A stretch of 39,925 nt of DNA. Source: a virus. Positions 159-4,164 of the stretch are shown here, one piece after another. Both the position numbers and the translations under genes were made by a program. The stretch's first letter is position 1; every line of letters begins with the position of its first letter. Below the pieces are notes generated by a model. The model worked only from the letters and a program-made list of their open reading frames with translations. It was not told the DNA's origin and made no database searches. The stretch covers positions 1 to 39,925 of IMG/VR virus record IMGVR_UViG_3300034071_001390, one strand, 5' to 3'.

Positions 159-297
159 CCTGCTGTTCGACATCCGGGTAGCGGCAGGCGACAAAGGCGG
201 CAAGCTGATGCAGTTGGAACTGGTCGAGTTGATAGCGAGGCAGCGGGAAGAGTGCGACCAGATGCGAGCGGCTGAGGCAGCCCGGGGCGCTAAGTGA
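31..297 (+). CDS. Small hypothetical phage protein, 88 aa
   Basis: Function not recognised. The ATG at 31 overlaps the stop of the preceding gene (seen as ATGA at 39798-39801 in the other copy), so it is preferred over an in-frame GTG at 13. The protein has an acidic, Tyr/Ala-rich N-terminal half with a YTADQMREYA-type stretch, which I know from other phage early proteins, and a helical C-terminus. It sits in the rightward early operon just before the Ref-like nuclease, overlapping it by four bases (GTGA). One codon here (GCA, or GTA in the right-hand copy) is polymorphic between the two ends. Confidence 0.8.
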   Translation: MKTETVKLPRPDYAAPTIYEYTADQMREYAAQAAAAENYGLLSLLFDIRVAAGDKGGKLMQLELVELIARQREECDQMRAAEAARGAK

Positions 298-644
298 AGA
301 CCGGTCGCAGCACAGGAAAGCCGACATCGGCGCAGGTTGCCCGGTTTGACTGCATCCGCGAGGAGGGCTGTCTCGTAGCTCAGATCCTTGGGATCGACTG
401 GCTGCCGGCAGAGATTCACCATCTGACGACAGGCGGCAAGCACGGGCAGAAACGCCTGGGGCACGACAGTAGCATCGGGCTAAACTGCTGGTCTCACCGT
501 GGCGTTCCGTTGGACGGCTGGTCGGCTGAGCGGTGCAGGGACGTGCTGGGGCCTAGCTACGCGCGAGAGCCCCGGCTGTTCCGGGAGCTATTCGGCAGTG
601 ACGACGAGCTACTCGCCCGTCAGAATGAGATTCTGGGCCTGTGA
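294..644 (+). CDS. Ref-like HNH nuclease (recombination associated)
   Basis: The product resembles phage P1 Ref and related small HNH nucleases, which cut DNA at RecA-held displacement loops. The sequence shows the EIHHLTTG motif (about residues 40-47), a GHDSSIGLNCWSHR-type zinc/HNH motif (about 56-69) and a late FRELFG segment, all in the order expected for this family. The N-terminal Cys pair is only partly conserved (DCIREEGC). It starts at GTG 294, overlapping the previous stop by four bases, and closes the rightward early operon. With RusA and NinB upstream it makes a recombination/resolution group. The 3' end overlaps a convergent minus-strand gene by 25 bases. Family assignment is by motif only. 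Confidence 0.7.
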   Translation: MKTGRSTGKPTSAQVARFDCIREEGCLVAQILGIDWLPAEIHHLTTGGKHGQKRLGHDSSIGLNCWSHRGVPLDGWSAERCRDVLGPSYAREPRLFRELFGSDDELLARQNEILGL

Positions 645-859
645 CCAGCCAGCGACCGGGCCATCGCCATATGATAGTCCCGCCGGTCAAAGTACCTGAC
701 GCTAGCCTCACGCCAGCTACAGGGGTAGTCATCAGACGATGCGCGAGCCTTGCAGGCGACCCCAACCGTGTTGCACAGCTTGGCGTCGTGGATGTGTTTG
801 TGGATGGCGCTGCTGTGTAGGAGGCGCTTGAGGCGGGCGCGGGCGGTTTGGGCGGTCAC
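620..859 (-). CDS. Small hypothetical protein of the second switch region, 79 aa
   Basis: Function not recognised. The start is GTG at 859, overlapping the stop of the upstream gene by four bases (GTGA), with a purine-rich GGGGGCGAG upstream. The protein is basic (Arg/His-rich at both ends) with three cysteines (about residues 29, 36 and 47). Translational coupling is the main support. Its 3' end overlaps the convergent Ref-like gene. It would be the last gene of a two-gene leftward unit transcribed away from the Cro-like gene at 1255. Confidence 0.6.
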   Translation of the reverse strand: MTAQTARARLKRLLHSSAIHKHIHDAKLCNTVGVACKARASSDDYPCSWREASVRYFDRRDYHMAMARSLAGHRPRISF

Positions 860-1131
860 GACTCGCCCCCGATCAGGTCAGATTCGGTTAGGCTGGGATC
901 GCAGAGCTTGCGCAGGTTCTCATATTGATATTGGTCAAGCGTTCTCAGGTCAAACCATACCGGCCGAGCTGGGCGCATCATTTCGATTTTCGTAAGCATT
1001 TGGAAGTACGGCCTACATAGCTCCGTGTATTCGCGGTGCAGGTCAGCGAGGCGCTGCTTTATAACCCGCTCCGCTTCGTCTATATCGTGAGGGACATGAA
1101 AATACGGCGGAACTTCGAGTTGGTCACTCAT
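856..1131 (-). CDS. Hypothetical protein, first gene of the second leftward unit, 91 aa
   Basis: Function not recognised. ATG at 1131 is preceded by AGGAGA at good spacing. The protein is acidic, with a helical middle section and aromatic-rich termini; no membrane segment or signal peptide is seen. It lies directly under a leftward promoter (-35 TTGCGT, 17-base spacer, -10 TACATT, 1171-1199) divergent from the Cro-like gene. In a lambda-type switch this would be the repressor position, but no helix-turn-helix is visible. Immunity or regulatory function is therefore unproven. Confidence 0.75.
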   Translation of the reverse strand: MSDQLEVPPYFHVPHDIDEAERVIKQRLADLHREYTELCRPYFQMLTKIEMMRPARPVWFDLRTLDQYQYENLRKLCDPSLTESDLIGGES

Positions 1132-1170
1132 CTTCGTCTCTCCTCGCCAGCACCGCGCTGGCCATGAGCT

Positions 1171-1199
1171 AATGTAAACCTACGTTGTCAGACACGCAA
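1171..1199 (-). promoter_or_regulatory. Leftward promoter of the second switch
   Basis: On the minus strand a -35 TTGCGT (plus 1194-1199) is followed after exactly 17 bases by -10 TACATT (plus 1171-1176), ahead of the gene starting at 1131. The operator-like site 1174-1189 covers the -10 and spacer. Prediction from sequence only. Confidence 0.5.
1174..1189. promoter_or_regulatory. Operator-like inverted repeat, left site of second switch
   Basis: GTAAACCTACGTTGTC: half-site GTAAAC, four-base spacer, and a diverged inverted half-site GTTGTC. It is related to the site at 1217-1232 in the opposite orientation; the centres are 43 bp apart, close to four helical turns. It overlaps the leftward -10. 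Confidence 0.5.
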
Positions 1200-1216
1200 G
1201 GATTACCCGACGAACG

Positions 1217-1232
1217 GTCAACCATAGTTTAC
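1217..1232. promoter_or_regulatory. Operator-like inverted repeat, right site of second switch
   Basis: GTCAACCATAGTTTAC: half-sites GTCAAC and GTTTAC around a four-base spacer. The left half lies within a 17-base string (1206-1222) that occurs identically at 29030-29046 in the main early switch. It sits directly upstream of the extended -10 of the Cro-like gene. Confidence 0.55.
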
Positions 1233-1238
1233 AAATGA

Positions 1239-1247
1239 TGCTAGGAT
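1239..1247 (+). promoter_or_regulatory. Extended -10 for the Cro-like gene at 1255
   Basis: TGcTAGGAT reads as an extended -10 (TG-N-TAGGAT) without a good -35. The predicted start is near 1254, at or just before ATG 1255, so the transcript could be nearly leaderless. The same TAGGAT hexamer is the predicted -10 of the main leftward promoter (28986-28991). Confidence 0.4.
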
Positions 1248-1254
1248 GCTCCCC

Positions 1255-1449
1255 ATGGAAACGAAGACGGCCGACATCATCAAAGCGCTAGGCGGCGCAT
1301 CCGCAGTCGCGAGGAAGTGTAATATCTCTCGGCAGGCGGTCAGGGCTTGGAAGGTCAGAGACGAGATCCCGCCGGCTCGCCTGCAACTGTTTCAGGAAAT
1401 CAGACCGGACATTTTCAACCACCTGACGGCAGCACGGCCGGAACCGTAA
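1255..1449 (+). CDS. Cro/YdaS-like helix-turn-helix regulator, 64 aa
   Basis: A small DNA-binding protein of the Cro/YdaS type. The N-terminal half reads IIKALGGASAVARKCNISRQ followed by AVRAWKVRDEIPP, the standard layout of helix 2, turn, recognition helix (SRQAVRAWK) and the I-P-P/A-R-L segment of this family. An in-frame ATG exists at 1246, but AGGA lies about eight bases before ATG 1255, so 1255 is preferred. It faces a divergent gene at 1131, with operator-like repeats between them. A second protein of the same type is encoded at 29088. No repressor gene pairs with it. Confidence 0.85.
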   Translation: METKTADIIKALGGASAVARKCNISRQAVRAWKVRDEIPPARLQLFQEIRPDIFNHLTAARPEP

Positions 1450-1786
1450 CCGGCACCTTCACGCATGCGGCTGGATAGTTGGTCTAAGCCATAAGCAGCC
1501 CCTACAGGCTCCCCGAGGCGGGCCGGCCGCAGCCGTGAAGAGTAAATGGCTGGATGACCTCCCCGGTATCCAAGACGGCCAAGATTCGAGTTATGCCGGG
1601 GCCGCCACAAGCGGCAGCGGAAAGTGAGAAGTTGGCCCCTGCGGGCGCTCACAATCTCCCGGCGCCAGAAGTGGGTGAATGCAAACGGAGGCGAATCCGT
1701 TAAGCCGTGAGGGGCAAAGTCGAAGGCAGGCACAACCACTGCGTCAAGAGCCTAGATGAACGTCTACGTGGTACCCCATGCATAAA

Positions 1787-1809
1787 GCCGGGATCGCATC
1801 CGGCCACCC
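1787..1809. repeat. 23-base direct repeat, copy 1 (T-arm-like hairpin)
   Basis: Identical to 2319-2341. It folds as GCCGG / CCGGC around an eight-base loop GATCGCAT, resembling a tRNA T-arm, and is followed by CACCC. The two copies bracket the tRNA-like part of the structured region. Confidence 0.85.
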
Positions 1810-1840
1810 ATGTTCAACCGGCCCTAGTGGCCGTAGCAAT

Positions 1841-1908
1841 ACCCCGGTAACTCAGTGGCAGAGTTCGCGGATTCCGCGAGGTCGTCGGGTTCGACTCCCG
1901 GCCCGGGT
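1841..1908 (+). tRNA. tRNA-like element with unusual anticodon loop
   Basis: The cloverleaf is nearly complete: acceptor ACCCCGG (1841-1847) with 1902-1908, six of seven pairs; D-arm ACTC/GAGT (1850-1853/1861-1864); T-stem TCGGG/CCCGG with the canonical loop TTCGACT (1890-1896). The anticodon stem can only be drawn as TCGC/GCGA around loop GGATTCC, which lacks U33 and would give anticodon AUU. No CCA is encoded (T then TGA follows). The isotype cannot be decided. It may be a decayed tRNA, a tRNA mimic or a domain of the larger RNA. Confidence 0.5.
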
Positions 1909-1917
1909 TTGAGCAAT

Positions 1918-2039
1918 ACCCCGGCGGCCGAGTGATTCGGCTATACGTGAGGTTCCGAGGGCGGGGGCGCGACCTGAAATCGTGTGCTGGTAGCGCCGCG
2001 CAGGATCGGTCCCGGTATTCAATCCGGCCCGGGGTTCCA
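1918..2039 (+). tRNA. Oversized tRNA-Ser(UGA)-like element, 122 nt
   Basis: Seven perfect acceptor pairs (1918-1924 with 2029-2035), then T2036 and an encoded CCA at 2037-2039. The D-arm GCCG/CGGC (1927-1941) has a serine-type GCCGAG start. The T-arm CCGG/CCGG has an eight-base loop TATTCAAT. An anticodon arm CGCGA-CCTGAAA-TCGTG (1968-1984) gives UGA, close to the bacterial tRNA-Ser loop CTTGAAA but with C33. About 26 extra bases separate the D and anticodon arms, and the variable region is about 27 bases. It starts with the same 12 bases (GCAATACCCCGG) as the preceding element, 77 bases earlier. Function as a charged tRNA is uncertain. Confidence 0.45.
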
Positions 2040-2318
2040 AACAATGCGGAAGAACGTTAAGCCGGCCGTCCCTTTTGGAGCAAGGGTGAGGCGGCCGGAT
2101 CGGGTGATAGCCGGAGAAGCGTAGGCGTTCCGGCCCGCATTGTGCAATAAGGCGTGGCCCCGGCCTAACACGGGGCGATGTTTTATTGAATCTGAAATAA
2201 AAGTCAATAATTGCTGTTCCACCCCGGGCAACCGGGTTCCAAGTTAGGGTGAATGCGTAGGCGATACGATGGGAGTACCAGCCGGGGCCGAAGCAGACGT
2301 GCTTAGGAACGCGGCAAT

Positions 2319-2341
2319 GCCGGGATCGCATCCGGCCACCC
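2319..2341. repeat. 23-base direct repeat, copy 2 (T-arm-like hairpin)
   Basis: Exact second copy of 1787-1809, 532 bases downstream. It is followed immediately by the hairpin at 2350-2371, so it marks the 3' boundary of the structured RNA region. Confidence 0.85.
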
Positions 2342-2349
2342 TGCACCAC

Positions 2350-2378
2350 CCGCCCCAGCGCATCGGGGCGGCCTTATT
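2350..2378 (+). terminator. GC-rich hairpin at the end of the structured RNA
   Basis: CCGCCCC (2350-2356) pairs with GGGGCGG (2365-2371) around an eight-base loop and is followed by CCTTATT. The stem is strong but the U-tract poor, so it could be a weak intrinsic terminator or a processing/boundary hairpin before tRNA-Pro. Confidence 0.45.
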
Positions 2379-2381
2379 CAA

Positions 2382-2459
2382 CAGGGATTAGCTCAGTCTG
2401 GTTAGAGCACTCGCTTTGGAAGCGAGTGGCCCGAGGTTCAAATCCTCGATCCCTGACCA
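2382..2459 (+). tRNA. tRNA-Pro(UGG)
   Basis: A full cloverleaf: seven acceptor pairs (2382-2388 with 2449-2455), discriminator A and encoded CCA at 2457-2459. The D-arm is GCTC/GAGC, the anticodon stem CTCGC/GCGAG, the loop TTTGGAA with anticodon TGG at 2417-2419, and the T-arm GAGG with TTCAAAT. It reads CCN proline codons. It is plainly canonical, in contrast to the elements upstream. Confidence 0.93.
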
Positions 2460-2588
2460 AGCAGGCCGGCATCGTGGTGGAGAAGGCTAGGGGGCGTTAC
2501 GGCAGCGGTTACGCCGTACGTTGGCCCCAAGCGCCGCCGGGTTAAAGAAATACCCACGATGACAGGCCGGAAAGACGGCCACAGATAC

Positions 2589-2664
2589 AGTCCTCTAGCT
2601 CAATTGGTAGAGCAGTGCCCTTTGACGGCATTGGTTTCAGGTTCAAGTCCTGAGGGGACCGCCA
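2589..2664 (+). tRNA. tRNA-Gln(UUG)
   Basis: Cloverleaf with D-arm GCTC/GAGC, anticodon stem GTGCC/GGCAT, loop CTTTGAC with anticodon TTG at 2622-2624, T-stem TCAGG/CCTGA with loop TTCAAGT, discriminator G and encoded CCA at 2662-2664. With the standard T8-A9 register the acceptor is AGTCCTC against GGGGACC, which leaves A1 opposite C72. A weak first pair is known to suit glutaminyl-tRNA synthetase, which opens it. Such a mismatch is otherwise typical of initiator tRNAs. Confidence 0.88.
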
Positions 2665-2693
2665 AGTTCACCCGCCGCTCCCCTCGGCGGTCC

Positions 2694-2735
2694 GGCCCAC
2701 GGCATCCTCCCCTGTTGCCGTGGGCCATCTTTTCT
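2694..2735 (+). terminator. Strong rho-independent terminator after the tRNA genes
   Basis: An 11-bp perfect stem, GGCCCACGGCA (2694-2704) with TGCCGTGGGCC (2716-2726), is followed by ATCTTTTCT. A smaller CCGCCG/CGGCGG hairpin lies just upstream (about 2673-2690). It would end the transcript carrying the structured RNA and the two tRNAs. Confidence 0.85.
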
Positions 2736-2792
2736 GTCAGAGTGTTCGGGTCCGATTTTGGCGAATCGGGTCTCTACAGTCTAGGAAACACG

Positions 2793-2896
2793 AACCCCGA
2801 GTGCATTTGGAGGGGCGGTGTAGTTGAAAGACGACCTAGACCGTCTTGATTCTGCCTCGCCAAGGCCCGCCCCTCCAAGCGTTCTCGGGGTTTTTC
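2793..2896 (+). ncRNA. Nested hairpin with tRNA-like core and terminator tail
   Basis: An outer stem of 9 bp (2793-2801 with 2884-2892) runs into TTTTTC, an intrinsic terminator. Inside it a 10-bp stem (2809-2818 with 2867-2876) closes a tRNA-sized core. Read as a tRNA, GGGGCGG/CCGCCCC would be the acceptor, T2874 the discriminator and CCA encoded at 2875-2877. A 6-bp arm AAGACG/CGTCTT holds the loop ACCTAGAC, which contains CTA, the amber-reading triplet. D- and T-arms are not canonical. This could be a small stable RNA, a decayed suppressor tRNA or simply an elaborate terminator. Confidence 0.5.
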
Positions 2897-3196
2897 TATG
2901 GCCGTTCGGACCCTCCAGAGGGCTCGGATAACGACGGCAGACTGGTTGTAAGCGCATACCGTGGGATAGGGTCTGAGACAGTGCGGCGCCCCGTAGTCAT
3001 CGCAGGGCGCGACCCGGATAAGGCGATGGCCAGCATGTCGGCTCCGAGAGGAAAGCCCCAGCTGAAACTCCTTAAGCCAAGGCTGTAGGATGCTTTCAGC
3101 TGTCTCACCAACAGGAAACGGGATGAACTGCACTAAGCTCTAACCGCTCTGATGCTATAAAGAGCTTTTGCCCTAGATGCGCCCCGAGGATCTGAA
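2897..3196 (+). promoter_or_regulatory. Leader region of the late operon
   Basis: This is 300 bases without a credible gene. A hairpin of 8 perfect pairs (3060-3067 with 3094-3101) contains an inner AGCC/GGCT. An extended -10, TGcTATAAA (3153-3161), lies 36 bases before the first late gene without a good -35, as expected of an activator- or antiterminator-dependent late promoter. AAGCTCT (3134-3140) and AGAGCTT flank it, followed by TTTTG, giving a weak terminator-like fold. Assignment as the late promoter is inference from position. Confidence 0.4.
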
Positions 3197-3394
3197 ATGA
3201 ACGACGAAATCAAAACTTGCCCCTTCTGCGGACACGCGCCAAACCACGGACCATGGCAGGCAGGAATCGACCGAGGATGGCCGGACAGCTATGCCGTCGA
3301 ATGCTCAAGCGCCTTGGACGACTGTCCAGTGAACCCGGCAATCACGGACTTCGACAAGAAAGGCGTGCTGACCGCATGGAACACCCGCGCATGA
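3197..3394 (+). CDS. Lar-like zinc-ribbon protein, 65 aa
   Basis: It resembles the restriction-alleviation (Lar) family, small phage proteins that reduce type I restriction of incoming DNA. The N-terminal CPFCGHAP (residues 8-15), a middle VEC segment followed by a C-P pair, and the terminal TAWNTRA are typical. The second zinc pair is less regular than in Lar (ECSSALDDCP). ATG 3197 has GAGG nine bases upstream. First gene of the late operon; its stop overlaps the next start by four bases. Many such zinc ribbons in phages have no tested function, so the restriction role is family-based. Confidence 0.7.
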   Translation: MNDEIKTCPFCGHAPNHGPWQAGIDRGWPDSYAVECSSALDDCPVNPAITDFDKKGVLTAWNTRA

Positions 3395-3780: not shown

Positions 3781-4164
3781 ATGCCATTCACGCTGTCCGA
3801 AAGATCAAAGAAGCGGTTGCAGGGCGTGCATCCGGACCTTGTGCGGGTTGTGGAACGCGCCATTGAGCTGACCCCCGTTGACTTCGTTGTGACGGAAGGG
3901 CTCAGGACGAAGGCCCGCCAGAAACAGCTATTCGAGGCCGGCGCATCGCAGACCATGAATTCCCGCCACATCACTGGGCACGCTGTAGACCTCGCGGCGC
4001 TGGTGGGTGGACAAGTCCGCTGGGACTGGCCGCTATACGGCAAACTCGCAGAGGCGATGAAGGCCGCAGCCGAAGATCTGAAAATCCCGCTGGAATGGGG
4101 CGGAGACTGGAAAACGCTTCGGGATGGCCCGCATTTCCAGCTATCACGGGCCAAGTACCCATGA
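3781..4164 (+). CDS. Endolysin: L-alanyl-D-glutamate/VanY-type M15 peptidase
   Basis: A phage lysin that cleaves the stem peptide of peptidoglycan. The zinc site is readable: SRHITGHAVDL gives His63 and Asp70, and PHFQL near the end gives His118, the order seen in the M15 lysins of phages such as T5. At 127 residues it matches a single catalytic domain with no wall-binding module, usual for Gram-negative hosts. There is no signal peptide, so it needs a holin for release. The start at 3781 has GGGGG upstream. It opens a run of five small membrane or lipoprotein genes that should complete the lysis cassette. Confidence 0.9.
   Translation: MPFTLSERSKKRLQGVHPDLVRVVERAIELTPVDFVVTEGLRTKARQKQLFEAGASQTMNSRHITGHAVDLAALVGGQVRWDWPLYGKLAEAMKAAAEDLKIPLEWGGDWKTLRDGPHFQLSRAKYP

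What the first reader, a model, noticed from the sequence alone, without database searches (positions are those of the whole stretch)
1450..2376. Possible giant structured RNA next to tRNA genes
Over 0.9 kb there are more than a dozen long, often perfect complementary stems, including a 9-bp stem closing 134 bases with nested stems and a GCAA tetraloop, but no believable protein. Size and tRNA context match known giant phage RNAs (GOLLD, ROOL), whose functions are only partly understood. It could be a divergent member or a new class.
Basis: inference. Interest (0 to 1): 0.75.

Follow-up and report, generated by a model that had tools for sequence, protein, structure and literature searches.

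The report
Widespread unannotated tRNA-like phage RNA family
A phage's noncoding stretch next to its tRNA genes is a chain of tRNA-shaped RNA modules, two of which belong to a previously unannotated RNA family that I also found in well over a hundred phages, including laboratory phages P1 and HK620, and in about a fifth of complete E. coli genomes.

Summary
The stretch is a real structured noncoding RNA island, but not one giant GOLLD/ROOL-type RNA. It is a chain of separately closed, tRNA-like modules ahead of tRNA-Pro and tRNA-Gln. Two modules (1670-1812, 2244-2344) belong to an RNA family with no Rfam 15 model, here called E. Its layout is closing stem P1, hairpin P2, a variable domain, and hairpin P4 stacked on P1, with the P2 and P4 loops pairing to each other. 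P1 covaries strongly: in 86 elements anchored without using P1, 98.7% of the seven inner positions pair versus 68.6% shuffled. The loop-loop contact has coordinated alleles (GCUGA/UCAGC, GCGA/UCGC, GGUGA/UCACC). E occurs in P1, HK620, PAJU2, PY54 and Klebsiella phages, and matches 1030 of 5426 E. coli genomes, usually unannotated, beside tRNAs or between Q and lysis genes. Window 1841-1909 is a tRNA with a 3-nt anticodon loop; in relatives, tRNAs with damaged anticodon arms are nested inside E. Function is inferred: phage-made mimics of the tRNA top half, decoying or recruiting host tRNA enzymes (about 0.3). RNase P punctuation or a leader switch are close rivals. I found no prior description, but the paper library is incomplete.

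The parts
1670..1812 (+). E element copy 1: P1 GUGGGUG/CACCCAU, P2 ACGGA-GGCGA-(A)-UCCGU, P4 GCCGG-GAUCGCAU-CCGGC stacked on P1'; P2-P4 loop contact GCGA/UCGC
   Evidence: R1 covariance model 41.4 bits (it was one of the sequences the model was built from); parsed; folds this way alone
2244..2344 (+). E element copy 2: P1 UAGGGUG/CACCCUG, P2 with GGCGA loop, P4 GCCGG-GAUCGCAU-CCGGC; GCGA/UCGC loop contact
   Evidence: R1 67.7 bits; the only hit to a sequence-free descriptor, 0.017 expected in shuffles
1841..1909 (+). tRNA-like module with D-arm, T-arm and acceptor (one C-C mismatch) but an anticodon loop of only 3 nt (CGCGG-AUU-CCGCG)
   Evidence: RF00005 tRNA 32.4 bits, gathering 29, alignment shown
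1919..2034 (+). Module A: CCCCGG/CCGGGG closing stem, D-arm-like hairpin GCCGA-GUGAU-UCGGC (1927-1941), T-arm-like CCGG-UAUUCAAU-CCGG (2012-2027), variable middle
   Evidence: same ends with different middles in L001, L087, L088; coordinates checked
2042..2142 (+). Module B: CAAUGCGG/CCGCAUUG closing stem; relatives carry a tRNA-like or E-like inside between the same ends
   Evidence: L001, L086, L087; R1 finds the L001 copy at 27.8 bits
1819..1833 (+). Linker hairpin CGGCC-CUAGU-GGCCG between modules, conserved in relatives
   Evidence: exact CCGGCCCTAGTGGCCGTAG in L001, L086, L087, L088; the fifth hit, L085, lies in a coding-type context
2157..2176 (+). Conserved local hairpin GCCCC...GGGGC
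   Evidence: sequence in window, L001, L086, L087
2382..2459 (+). tRNA-Pro (UGG)
   Evidence: ARAGORN and Rfam
2589..2664 (+). tRNA-Gln (UUG)
   Evidence: ARAGORN and Rfam

Best explanation
The region is a phage stable-RNA island: a chain of tRNA-like modules, most likely on one transcript with tRNA-Pro and tRNA-Gln. Two modules are members of a widespread, unannotated RNA family (E). SHOWN by comparison: E is closed by P1; P4 stacks directly on P1 as a T-arm stacks on an acceptor stem; P2 lies where a D-arm would; the P2 and P4 loops pair by 4-5 Watson-Crick pairs, an elbow made by base pairing; and the anticodon domain is replaced by a variable domain (9-166 nt) that sometimes holds tRNA pieces or a tRNA with a damaged anticodon arm. 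INFERRED: the modules are cut out or protected as stable RNAs during late infection, and mimic the top half of tRNA, without a usable anticodon, to engage host enzymes that recognise the tRNA elbow and acceptor (tRNA-processing enzymes or tRNA-cleaving defence nucleases) as decoys or recruiters. My confidence is about 0.95 that E is a real conserved RNA structure, about 0.85 for the loop-loop contact and about 0.3 for the decoy/mimic function.
For: P1 covaries: 98.7% paired versus 68.6% shuffled (max 74.3% in 1000) in 86 elements anchored only by P2 and P4, with 30 different 7-nt P1 sequences. In alignment A2, 96.3% of cells pair versus 80.5% shuffled and 34-41% when slid. P2 and P4 stems vary compensatorily in 131 parsed elements. 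Loop contact: P4 loops seen with a GCGA P2 loop are UCGC in 10/10 and UCAG in 0/10; with GGCUGA they are UCAG in 22/27; L163 carries GGUGA/UCACC; 0 of 2000 reshufflings of loop partners reach the observed pairing. Canonical T-arms are enriched inside E (10 versus 0 in shuffles) and upstream (13 versus 0.14), with 0 in control regions. E lies on the same strand as the nearest tRNA in 19/20 cases. tRNA-like modules with lost or broken anticodon arms but good D and T arms: window 1841-1909, L042, L218, L214, L224, L086.
Against: No expression, processing or binding data. P1 length varies and no CCA end is fixed, so a tRNA-type mature end is not evident. The variable domain has no constant feature. 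Only 16 of 130 elements lie within 500 nt of an ARAGORN tRNA (4.9 expected), so tRNA linkage is common but not universal. P1 and P4 were required to pair by the parser, so only the variety of pairs, not the percentage, counts there (avoid or limit this).
Confidence: 0.4

Rival explanations
1. Cis-acting punctuation or leader device: E marks RNase P or other cleavage sites in polycistronic tRNA or late-leader transcripts, or acts as a strand-exchange switch in which the P1 5' strand pairs either with an upstream complement (extending the preceding module or tRNA acceptor) or with its own P1'.
For: The complement of the P1 5' strand recurs within 300 nt upstream: 20 of 126 elements with 8 nt or more versus 2.2 expected (max 7), with no excess downstream. 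In L042 the preceding module is a tRNA whose acceptor would be extended by the same strand. E lies between Q and lysis genes in HK620, HK633 and PAJU2, and between Q and a tRNA in phiEt88, i.e. in leader position.
Against: Most elements lack a strong upstream complement. Locations vary (near terminase, RecT, ParB-like or endolysin genes), which does not fit one fixed cis role.
Confidence: 0.27
2. Degenerate tRNA graveyard: a recombination hot spot of decaying tRNA genes with no function of its own.
For: tRNA fragments and damaged tRNAs abound; module ends are conserved while middles are swapped.
Against: E is not tRNA-derived by sequence and shows strong compensatory change in P1, P2, P4 and the loop contact across very different phages; decaying DNA would not keep pairing.
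Confidence: 0.08
3. The whole island folds as one large RNA that self-assembles like GOLLD or ROOL, with tRNAs as cargo or linker.
For: GOLLD and ROOL are also phage RNAs near tRNA islands, and tRNAs can sit in the GOLLD linker (PMC12286853); E can hold a tRNA in its variable domain. The Klebsiella phage UPM 2146 island is 3.3 kb long.
Against: No Rfam GOLLD/ROOL match; E occurs alone or in different company in many phages, so it is a self-contained unit of about 60-220 nt.
Confidence: 0.1
4. E is a selfish or mobile unit that spreads by inserting at the base of hairpins or tRNA acceptor stems.
For: Patchy distribution, two copies per phage in several cases (window, P1, L057, L089, L156, L163, L209) and repeats of the P1' strand upstream.
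Against: No enzyme travels with it; the same position (Q to lysis) is kept in several lambdoid-type phages; the compensatory change is of RNA type, with G-U intermediates.
Confidence: 0.1

Closest known systems
GOLLD and ROOL RNAs (PMC12286853)
   Same: Phage/prophage structured RNAs of poorly understood function near tRNA islands; GOLLD has a variable linker that can contain tRNAs and rises during lysis.
   Different: No covariance-model match; E is much smaller, has a tRNA-like P1/P2/P4 layout and occurs as repeatable modules.
T4 rnaC and rnaD ('species 1 and 2' stable RNAs)
   Same: Small stable RNAs inside a phage tRNA cluster; rnaC ends in a T-arm-like hairpin.
   Different: R1 does not match the T4 cluster; no E motifs.
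tRNA (RF00005) and tmRNA tRNA-like domain
   Same: Acceptor-like P1 with T-arm-like P4 stacked on it, D-arm position for P2, loop-loop elbow; like tmRNA, the anticodon domain is replaced by an insert.
   Different: E is not recognised by the tRNA or tmRNA models or by ARAGORN; the elbow is a 4-5 bp Watson-Crick contact; no fixed CCA end; insert variable in length and content.
STnc100 / PasD prophage sRNAs (RF02076; PMC13192938)
   Same: Prophage sRNAs often near tRNA hits; a sub-threshold STnc100-like match lies just downstream of the second E in phage P1.
   Different: A separate RNA; E itself has no Rfam match.

Membership tests
GOLLD / ROOL | Match to the Rfam covariance model | tested here: not met
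   no match at gathering or at E up to 5 in 800-3000
GOLLD / ROOL | Phage RNA beside tRNA genes | tested here: met
   two canonical tRNAs directly downstream; 16 of 130 relatives within 500 nt of a tRNA versus 4.9 expected
GOLLD / ROOL | Homo-oligomeric RNA cage | not testable with these tools
   needs cryo-EM or native gels
tRNA | Match to RF00005 or ARAGORN for the two E copies | tested here: not met
tRNA | Module 1841-1909 matches RF00005 | tested here: met
   32.4 bits, gathering 29
tRNA | 7-nt anticodon loop in module 1841-1909 | tested here: not met
   3-nt loop AUU
tmRNA | Match to an Rfam tmRNA model | tested here: not met
   no match in the window; only sub-threshold hits in relatives
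T4 rnaC/rnaD | Match of the E model R1 to the T4 tRNA cluster | tested here: not met
E family (proposed) | P1 pairing with covariation | tested here: met
E family (proposed) | P2/P4 loop complementarity, conserved by coordinated change | tested here: met
E family (proposed) | Is transcribed as a discrete RNA | not testable with these tools
   no RNA data held

The most novel reading that the evidence does not exclude
Tailed phages of Pseudomonadota share a previously unrecognised class of anticodon-free tRNA mimics (E, plus tRNAs with deleted anticodon loops, sometimes nested one inside the other) made from tRNA islands and late leaders, which keep the tRNA elbow and acceptor while removing the part that anticodon nucleases cut. 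This would be an RNA-only counter-defence or tRNA-machinery takeover system present in classic phages such as P1.
Probability: 0.25. Interest if true: 0.93.

Novelty: new variant of a known kind. Interest (0 to 1): 0.78.

Why it matters
A conserved RNA with strong covariation appears to have gone unannotated in well-studied phages (P1, HK620, HK633, PAJU2, PY54, BASEL Bas80), in lytic Klebsiella phages and in 1030 of 5426 complete E. coli genomes. It gives the old question of what the extra stable RNAs in phage tRNA clusters do (T4 RNA C and D, GOLLD, ROOL) an easy laboratory model: phage P1 carries two copies beside its tRNAs. The anticodon-free tRNA-like modules suggest a testable link to tRNA-targeting phage defence. 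It also supplies a covariance model by which many phage genomes could be re-annotated.

Tried and rejected
(1) GOLLD/ROOL or any Rfam family: negative for the window and for relatives. (3) Protein coding: no Pfam match, no conserved frame. (4) DNA similarity to annotated phages: the main region matches only tRNAs, plus a Kintu hairpin at 2793-2900; the terminase side has no near match. (5) T4 rnaC/rnaD as members: rejected. (6) E. coli K-12 prophages DLP12 and Qin as a lab model: element absent. (7) A first alignment mixing types misaligned P1; types were then separated. (8) Many exact 16-mer hits are chance or coding and were dropped by the model. (9) genome search with R1 loses members because only 150 candidates are scored; an exact pattern gave 5 of 398 Pseudomonadota genomes, reversed control 0. 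(10) Literature: no paper in the held library contains the conserved sequences; topical searches found only GOLLD/ROOL, Pas/STnc100 and pR' region papers. Subscription papers are not held, so prior description cannot be excluded.

Full report
OBSERVATION. The window is an IMG/VR phage record of 39,925 bases with terminase, portal, endolysin and helicase genes. Between a small repressor-like ORF and tRNA-Pro/tRNA-Gln lies about 0.9 kb without a believable gene. It folds better than shuffles (z -2.94). The bare count of perfect stems is not above chance (13 versus mean 9.7), so the stems listed by eye are not evidence by themselves. The 9-bp stem spanning 134 bases (2156-2289) exists but crosses a better supported helix.

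RELATIVES. A short hairpin that occurs twice in the region (GCCGGGATCGCATCCGGCCACCC, at 1787 and 2319) led to a viral contig, L001, and then, with related patterns, to many loci. L001, L086, L087 and L088 carry the same kind of island: shared linkers (CCGGCCCTAGTGGCCGTAG) and shared module ends (ACCCCGG...CCGGGG; CAATGCGG...CCGCATTG) with different middles, next to ARAGORN tRNAs in L086 and L087.

THE E FAMILY. Around the recurring hairpin every true relative has the same anatomy: P1 (6-14 bp, sequence free), AAU or a longer AGCAGUAC junction, P2 (5 bp, loop GGCGA, GGCUGA or GUUGCGA), a variable domain of 9-166 nt, P4 (5 bp, 7-12 nt loop), and P1' directly after P4. Alignment A2 (17 sequences): 96.3% of cells pair versus 80.5% in shuffles and 34-41% when slid; 8 pairs have changes on both sides; covariation score 0.451 versus 0.142. 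P1 positions in A2 were chosen with pairing in view, so I repeated the test on 86 elements anchored only by P2 and by the P4 loop with its 3' strand: 98.7% of the seven inner P1 positions pair versus 68.6% (max 74.3% in 1000 shuffles), 80 of 86 perfectly, with 30 different P1 sequences. P2 and P4 stems also change compensatorily.

THE LOOP CONTACT. The commonest form has P2 loop GGCUGA and P4 loop AGAUCAGCA (GCUGA/UCAGC). The window form has GGCGA and GAUCGCAU (GCGA/UCGC): one base lost in each loop. A third form in L163 has GUGGUGA and GAUCACCU (GGUGA/UCACC). P4 loops seen with GCGA are UCGC in 10 of 10 distinct pairs and UCAG in none; those seen with GGCUGA are UCAG in 22 of 27. Random re-pairing of the 38 distinct loop pairs never reaches the observed complementarity (0 of 2000). 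The contact therefore has support from coordinated change. It places P2 and P4 together as the D and T arms meet in a tRNA elbow, but through ordinary base pairs.

MODEL AND SPREAD. Covariance model R1 marks both window copies (2244-2344, 67.7 bits; 1670-1812, 41.4 bits; both were among its building sequences) and nothing else convincing in the record. It was built from GCGA-type elements only, yet it recovers most contigs picked by the 15 fixed bases of the GGCNGA P2 pattern, plus second copies not selected by any pattern in L038 and L057. BLAST finds matches in 175 phage records (Klebsiella 69, Escherichia 43, Pseudomonas 25 and others) and 1030 of 5426 E. coli genomes, mostly with no annotated feature underneath. 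R1 confirms HK620, HK633, E. coli HS, swi2 and UPM 2146 and P1 (two copies), PAJU2, PY54, Bas80, ep3, Meifeng and phiEt88. The exact P2 19-mer is in 5 of 398 Pseudomonadota genomes, reversed control 0. No Rfam 15 family matches E in the window or in the sampled relatives at its gathering score.

CONTEXT. E lies between the antiterminator gene Q and the lysis genes in HK620 (between the annotated pR' promoter and terminator tQ), HK633, PAJU2 and an E. coli HS prophage; between Q and tRNA-Phe in phiEt88; beside tRNAs in P1 (Asn, Thr), swi2 and Bas80 (Met), and Meifeng (Arg, Thr, then a holin gene); and in a 3.3-kb gene-free stretch ending in tRNA-Met and tRNA-Arg in Klebsiella phage UPM 2146. 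Among 130 contig elements, 16 are within 500 nt of an ARAGORN tRNA versus 4.9 expected (max 9 of 200 draws), and E is on the strand of the nearest tRNA in 19 of 20 cases. Other positions also occur (near RecT, terminase small subunit or ParB-like genes by my reading of the translations). In the window an endolysin gene (3781-4164) follows about 1.4 kb downstream.

tRNA CONNECTION. Canonical T-arms (TTCRANY loop, 5-bp stem) occur 10 times in 10.8 kb of E variable domains (0 in shuffles), 13 times in the 400 nt upstream (0.14 in shuffles) and never in control stretches 3 kb away. Several of these tRNA-like modules match RF00005 with intact D and T arms but a broken or shortened anticodon arm: window 1841-1909 (32.4 bits, 3-nt anticodon loop), L042 upstream module (44.8 bits, shortened anticodon loop and long insert), and the tRNA-like RNAs nested inside E in L218, L214, L224 and L086 (31-38 bits). 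The chain therefore keeps the tRNA top half and gives up decoding. In a subset of loci the P1 5' strand also has a complement upstream (20 of 126 with 8 nt or more versus 2.2), so it could extend the preceding module instead of closing E. Phage P1 shows this alternation clearly (sequence).

EXPLANATION. What is shown is structure, distribution, orientation and the link with tRNA genes. What is inferred is function. The best-supported guess is that these are stable tRNA-top-half mimics made late in infection, acting as decoys for, or recruiters of, host proteins that read the tRNA elbow and acceptor; anticodon loss would fit escape from anticodon nucleases. Close rivals are processing punctuation or a strand-exchange leader switch. 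A pure graveyard is contradicted for E by covariation.

COMPARISON. GOLLD and ROOL are the nearest in kind: phage RNAs near tRNA islands, with tRNAs sometimes in the GOLLD linker and expression rising at lysis (PMC12286853). They are not the same family. T4 rnaC/rnaD are the nearest classical puzzle but do not match R1. The Pas/STnc100 work (PMC13192938) reports tRNA hits and other structured RNAs near prophage sRNAs; in the passages read it does not describe E.

NOVELTY AND LIMITS. A text search for the conserved sequences finds no paper in the held library, but most subscription papers are not in it. E-values from R1 are rough. No RNA data were available. I did not fetch Shiga-toxin phage late regions, so whether they carry similar modules is open.

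Noticed in passing
window 2793-2892: A 26-nt-arm inverted repeat enclosing a tRNA-like sequence; its homologue is an unannotated intergenic stretch of Xanthomonas phage Kintu (33727-33846).
   Followed up: partly
L271 2195-2315 (phage P1): Sub-threshold STnc100 (RF02076) match, 33.9 bits, just downstream of the second E copy in phage P1.
   Followed up: no
L186 2009-2083: Sub-threshold isrJ (RF01393) match, 34.5 bits versus gathering 37, overlapping the 3' part of an E element.
   Followed up: no
L028 upstream of 11825: Long (GGTGAA)n tandem repeat inside the 5' end of an E element, apparently an expansion of the conserved GGTGAATG start.
   Followed up: no
L269 1403-4739 (Klebsiella phage UPM 2146): 3.3-kb gene-free stretch with one E and many other closed modules before tRNA-Met and tRNA-Arg; part of it is shared with the HK620 late leader.
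   Followed up: partly
L147, L081, HK620 (L265 around 1920-2010), phage P1 (L271): A second recurring module upstream of E with closing stems of the type AAGAGCATT...AGTGCTCTT; another (AAGAGCGCGG...CGCTCTT) in L130 and L175. These look like further families.
   Followed up: no
L163 (- strand, about 2744 and 2419) and L089 (both strands): Two E copies in one phage: in L163 with different loop alleles, in L089 on opposite strands.
   Followed up: partly
L087 269-338: tRNA-Gly(UCC)-like gene missed by ARAGORN; Rfam tRNA 24.5 bits, below gathering 29.
   Followed up: partly
window 294-644 and 3197-3394: RecA-dependent nuclease (PF16786) and a weak Lar restriction-alleviation match (PF14354, below cut-off) flank the RNA island.
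   Followed up: no
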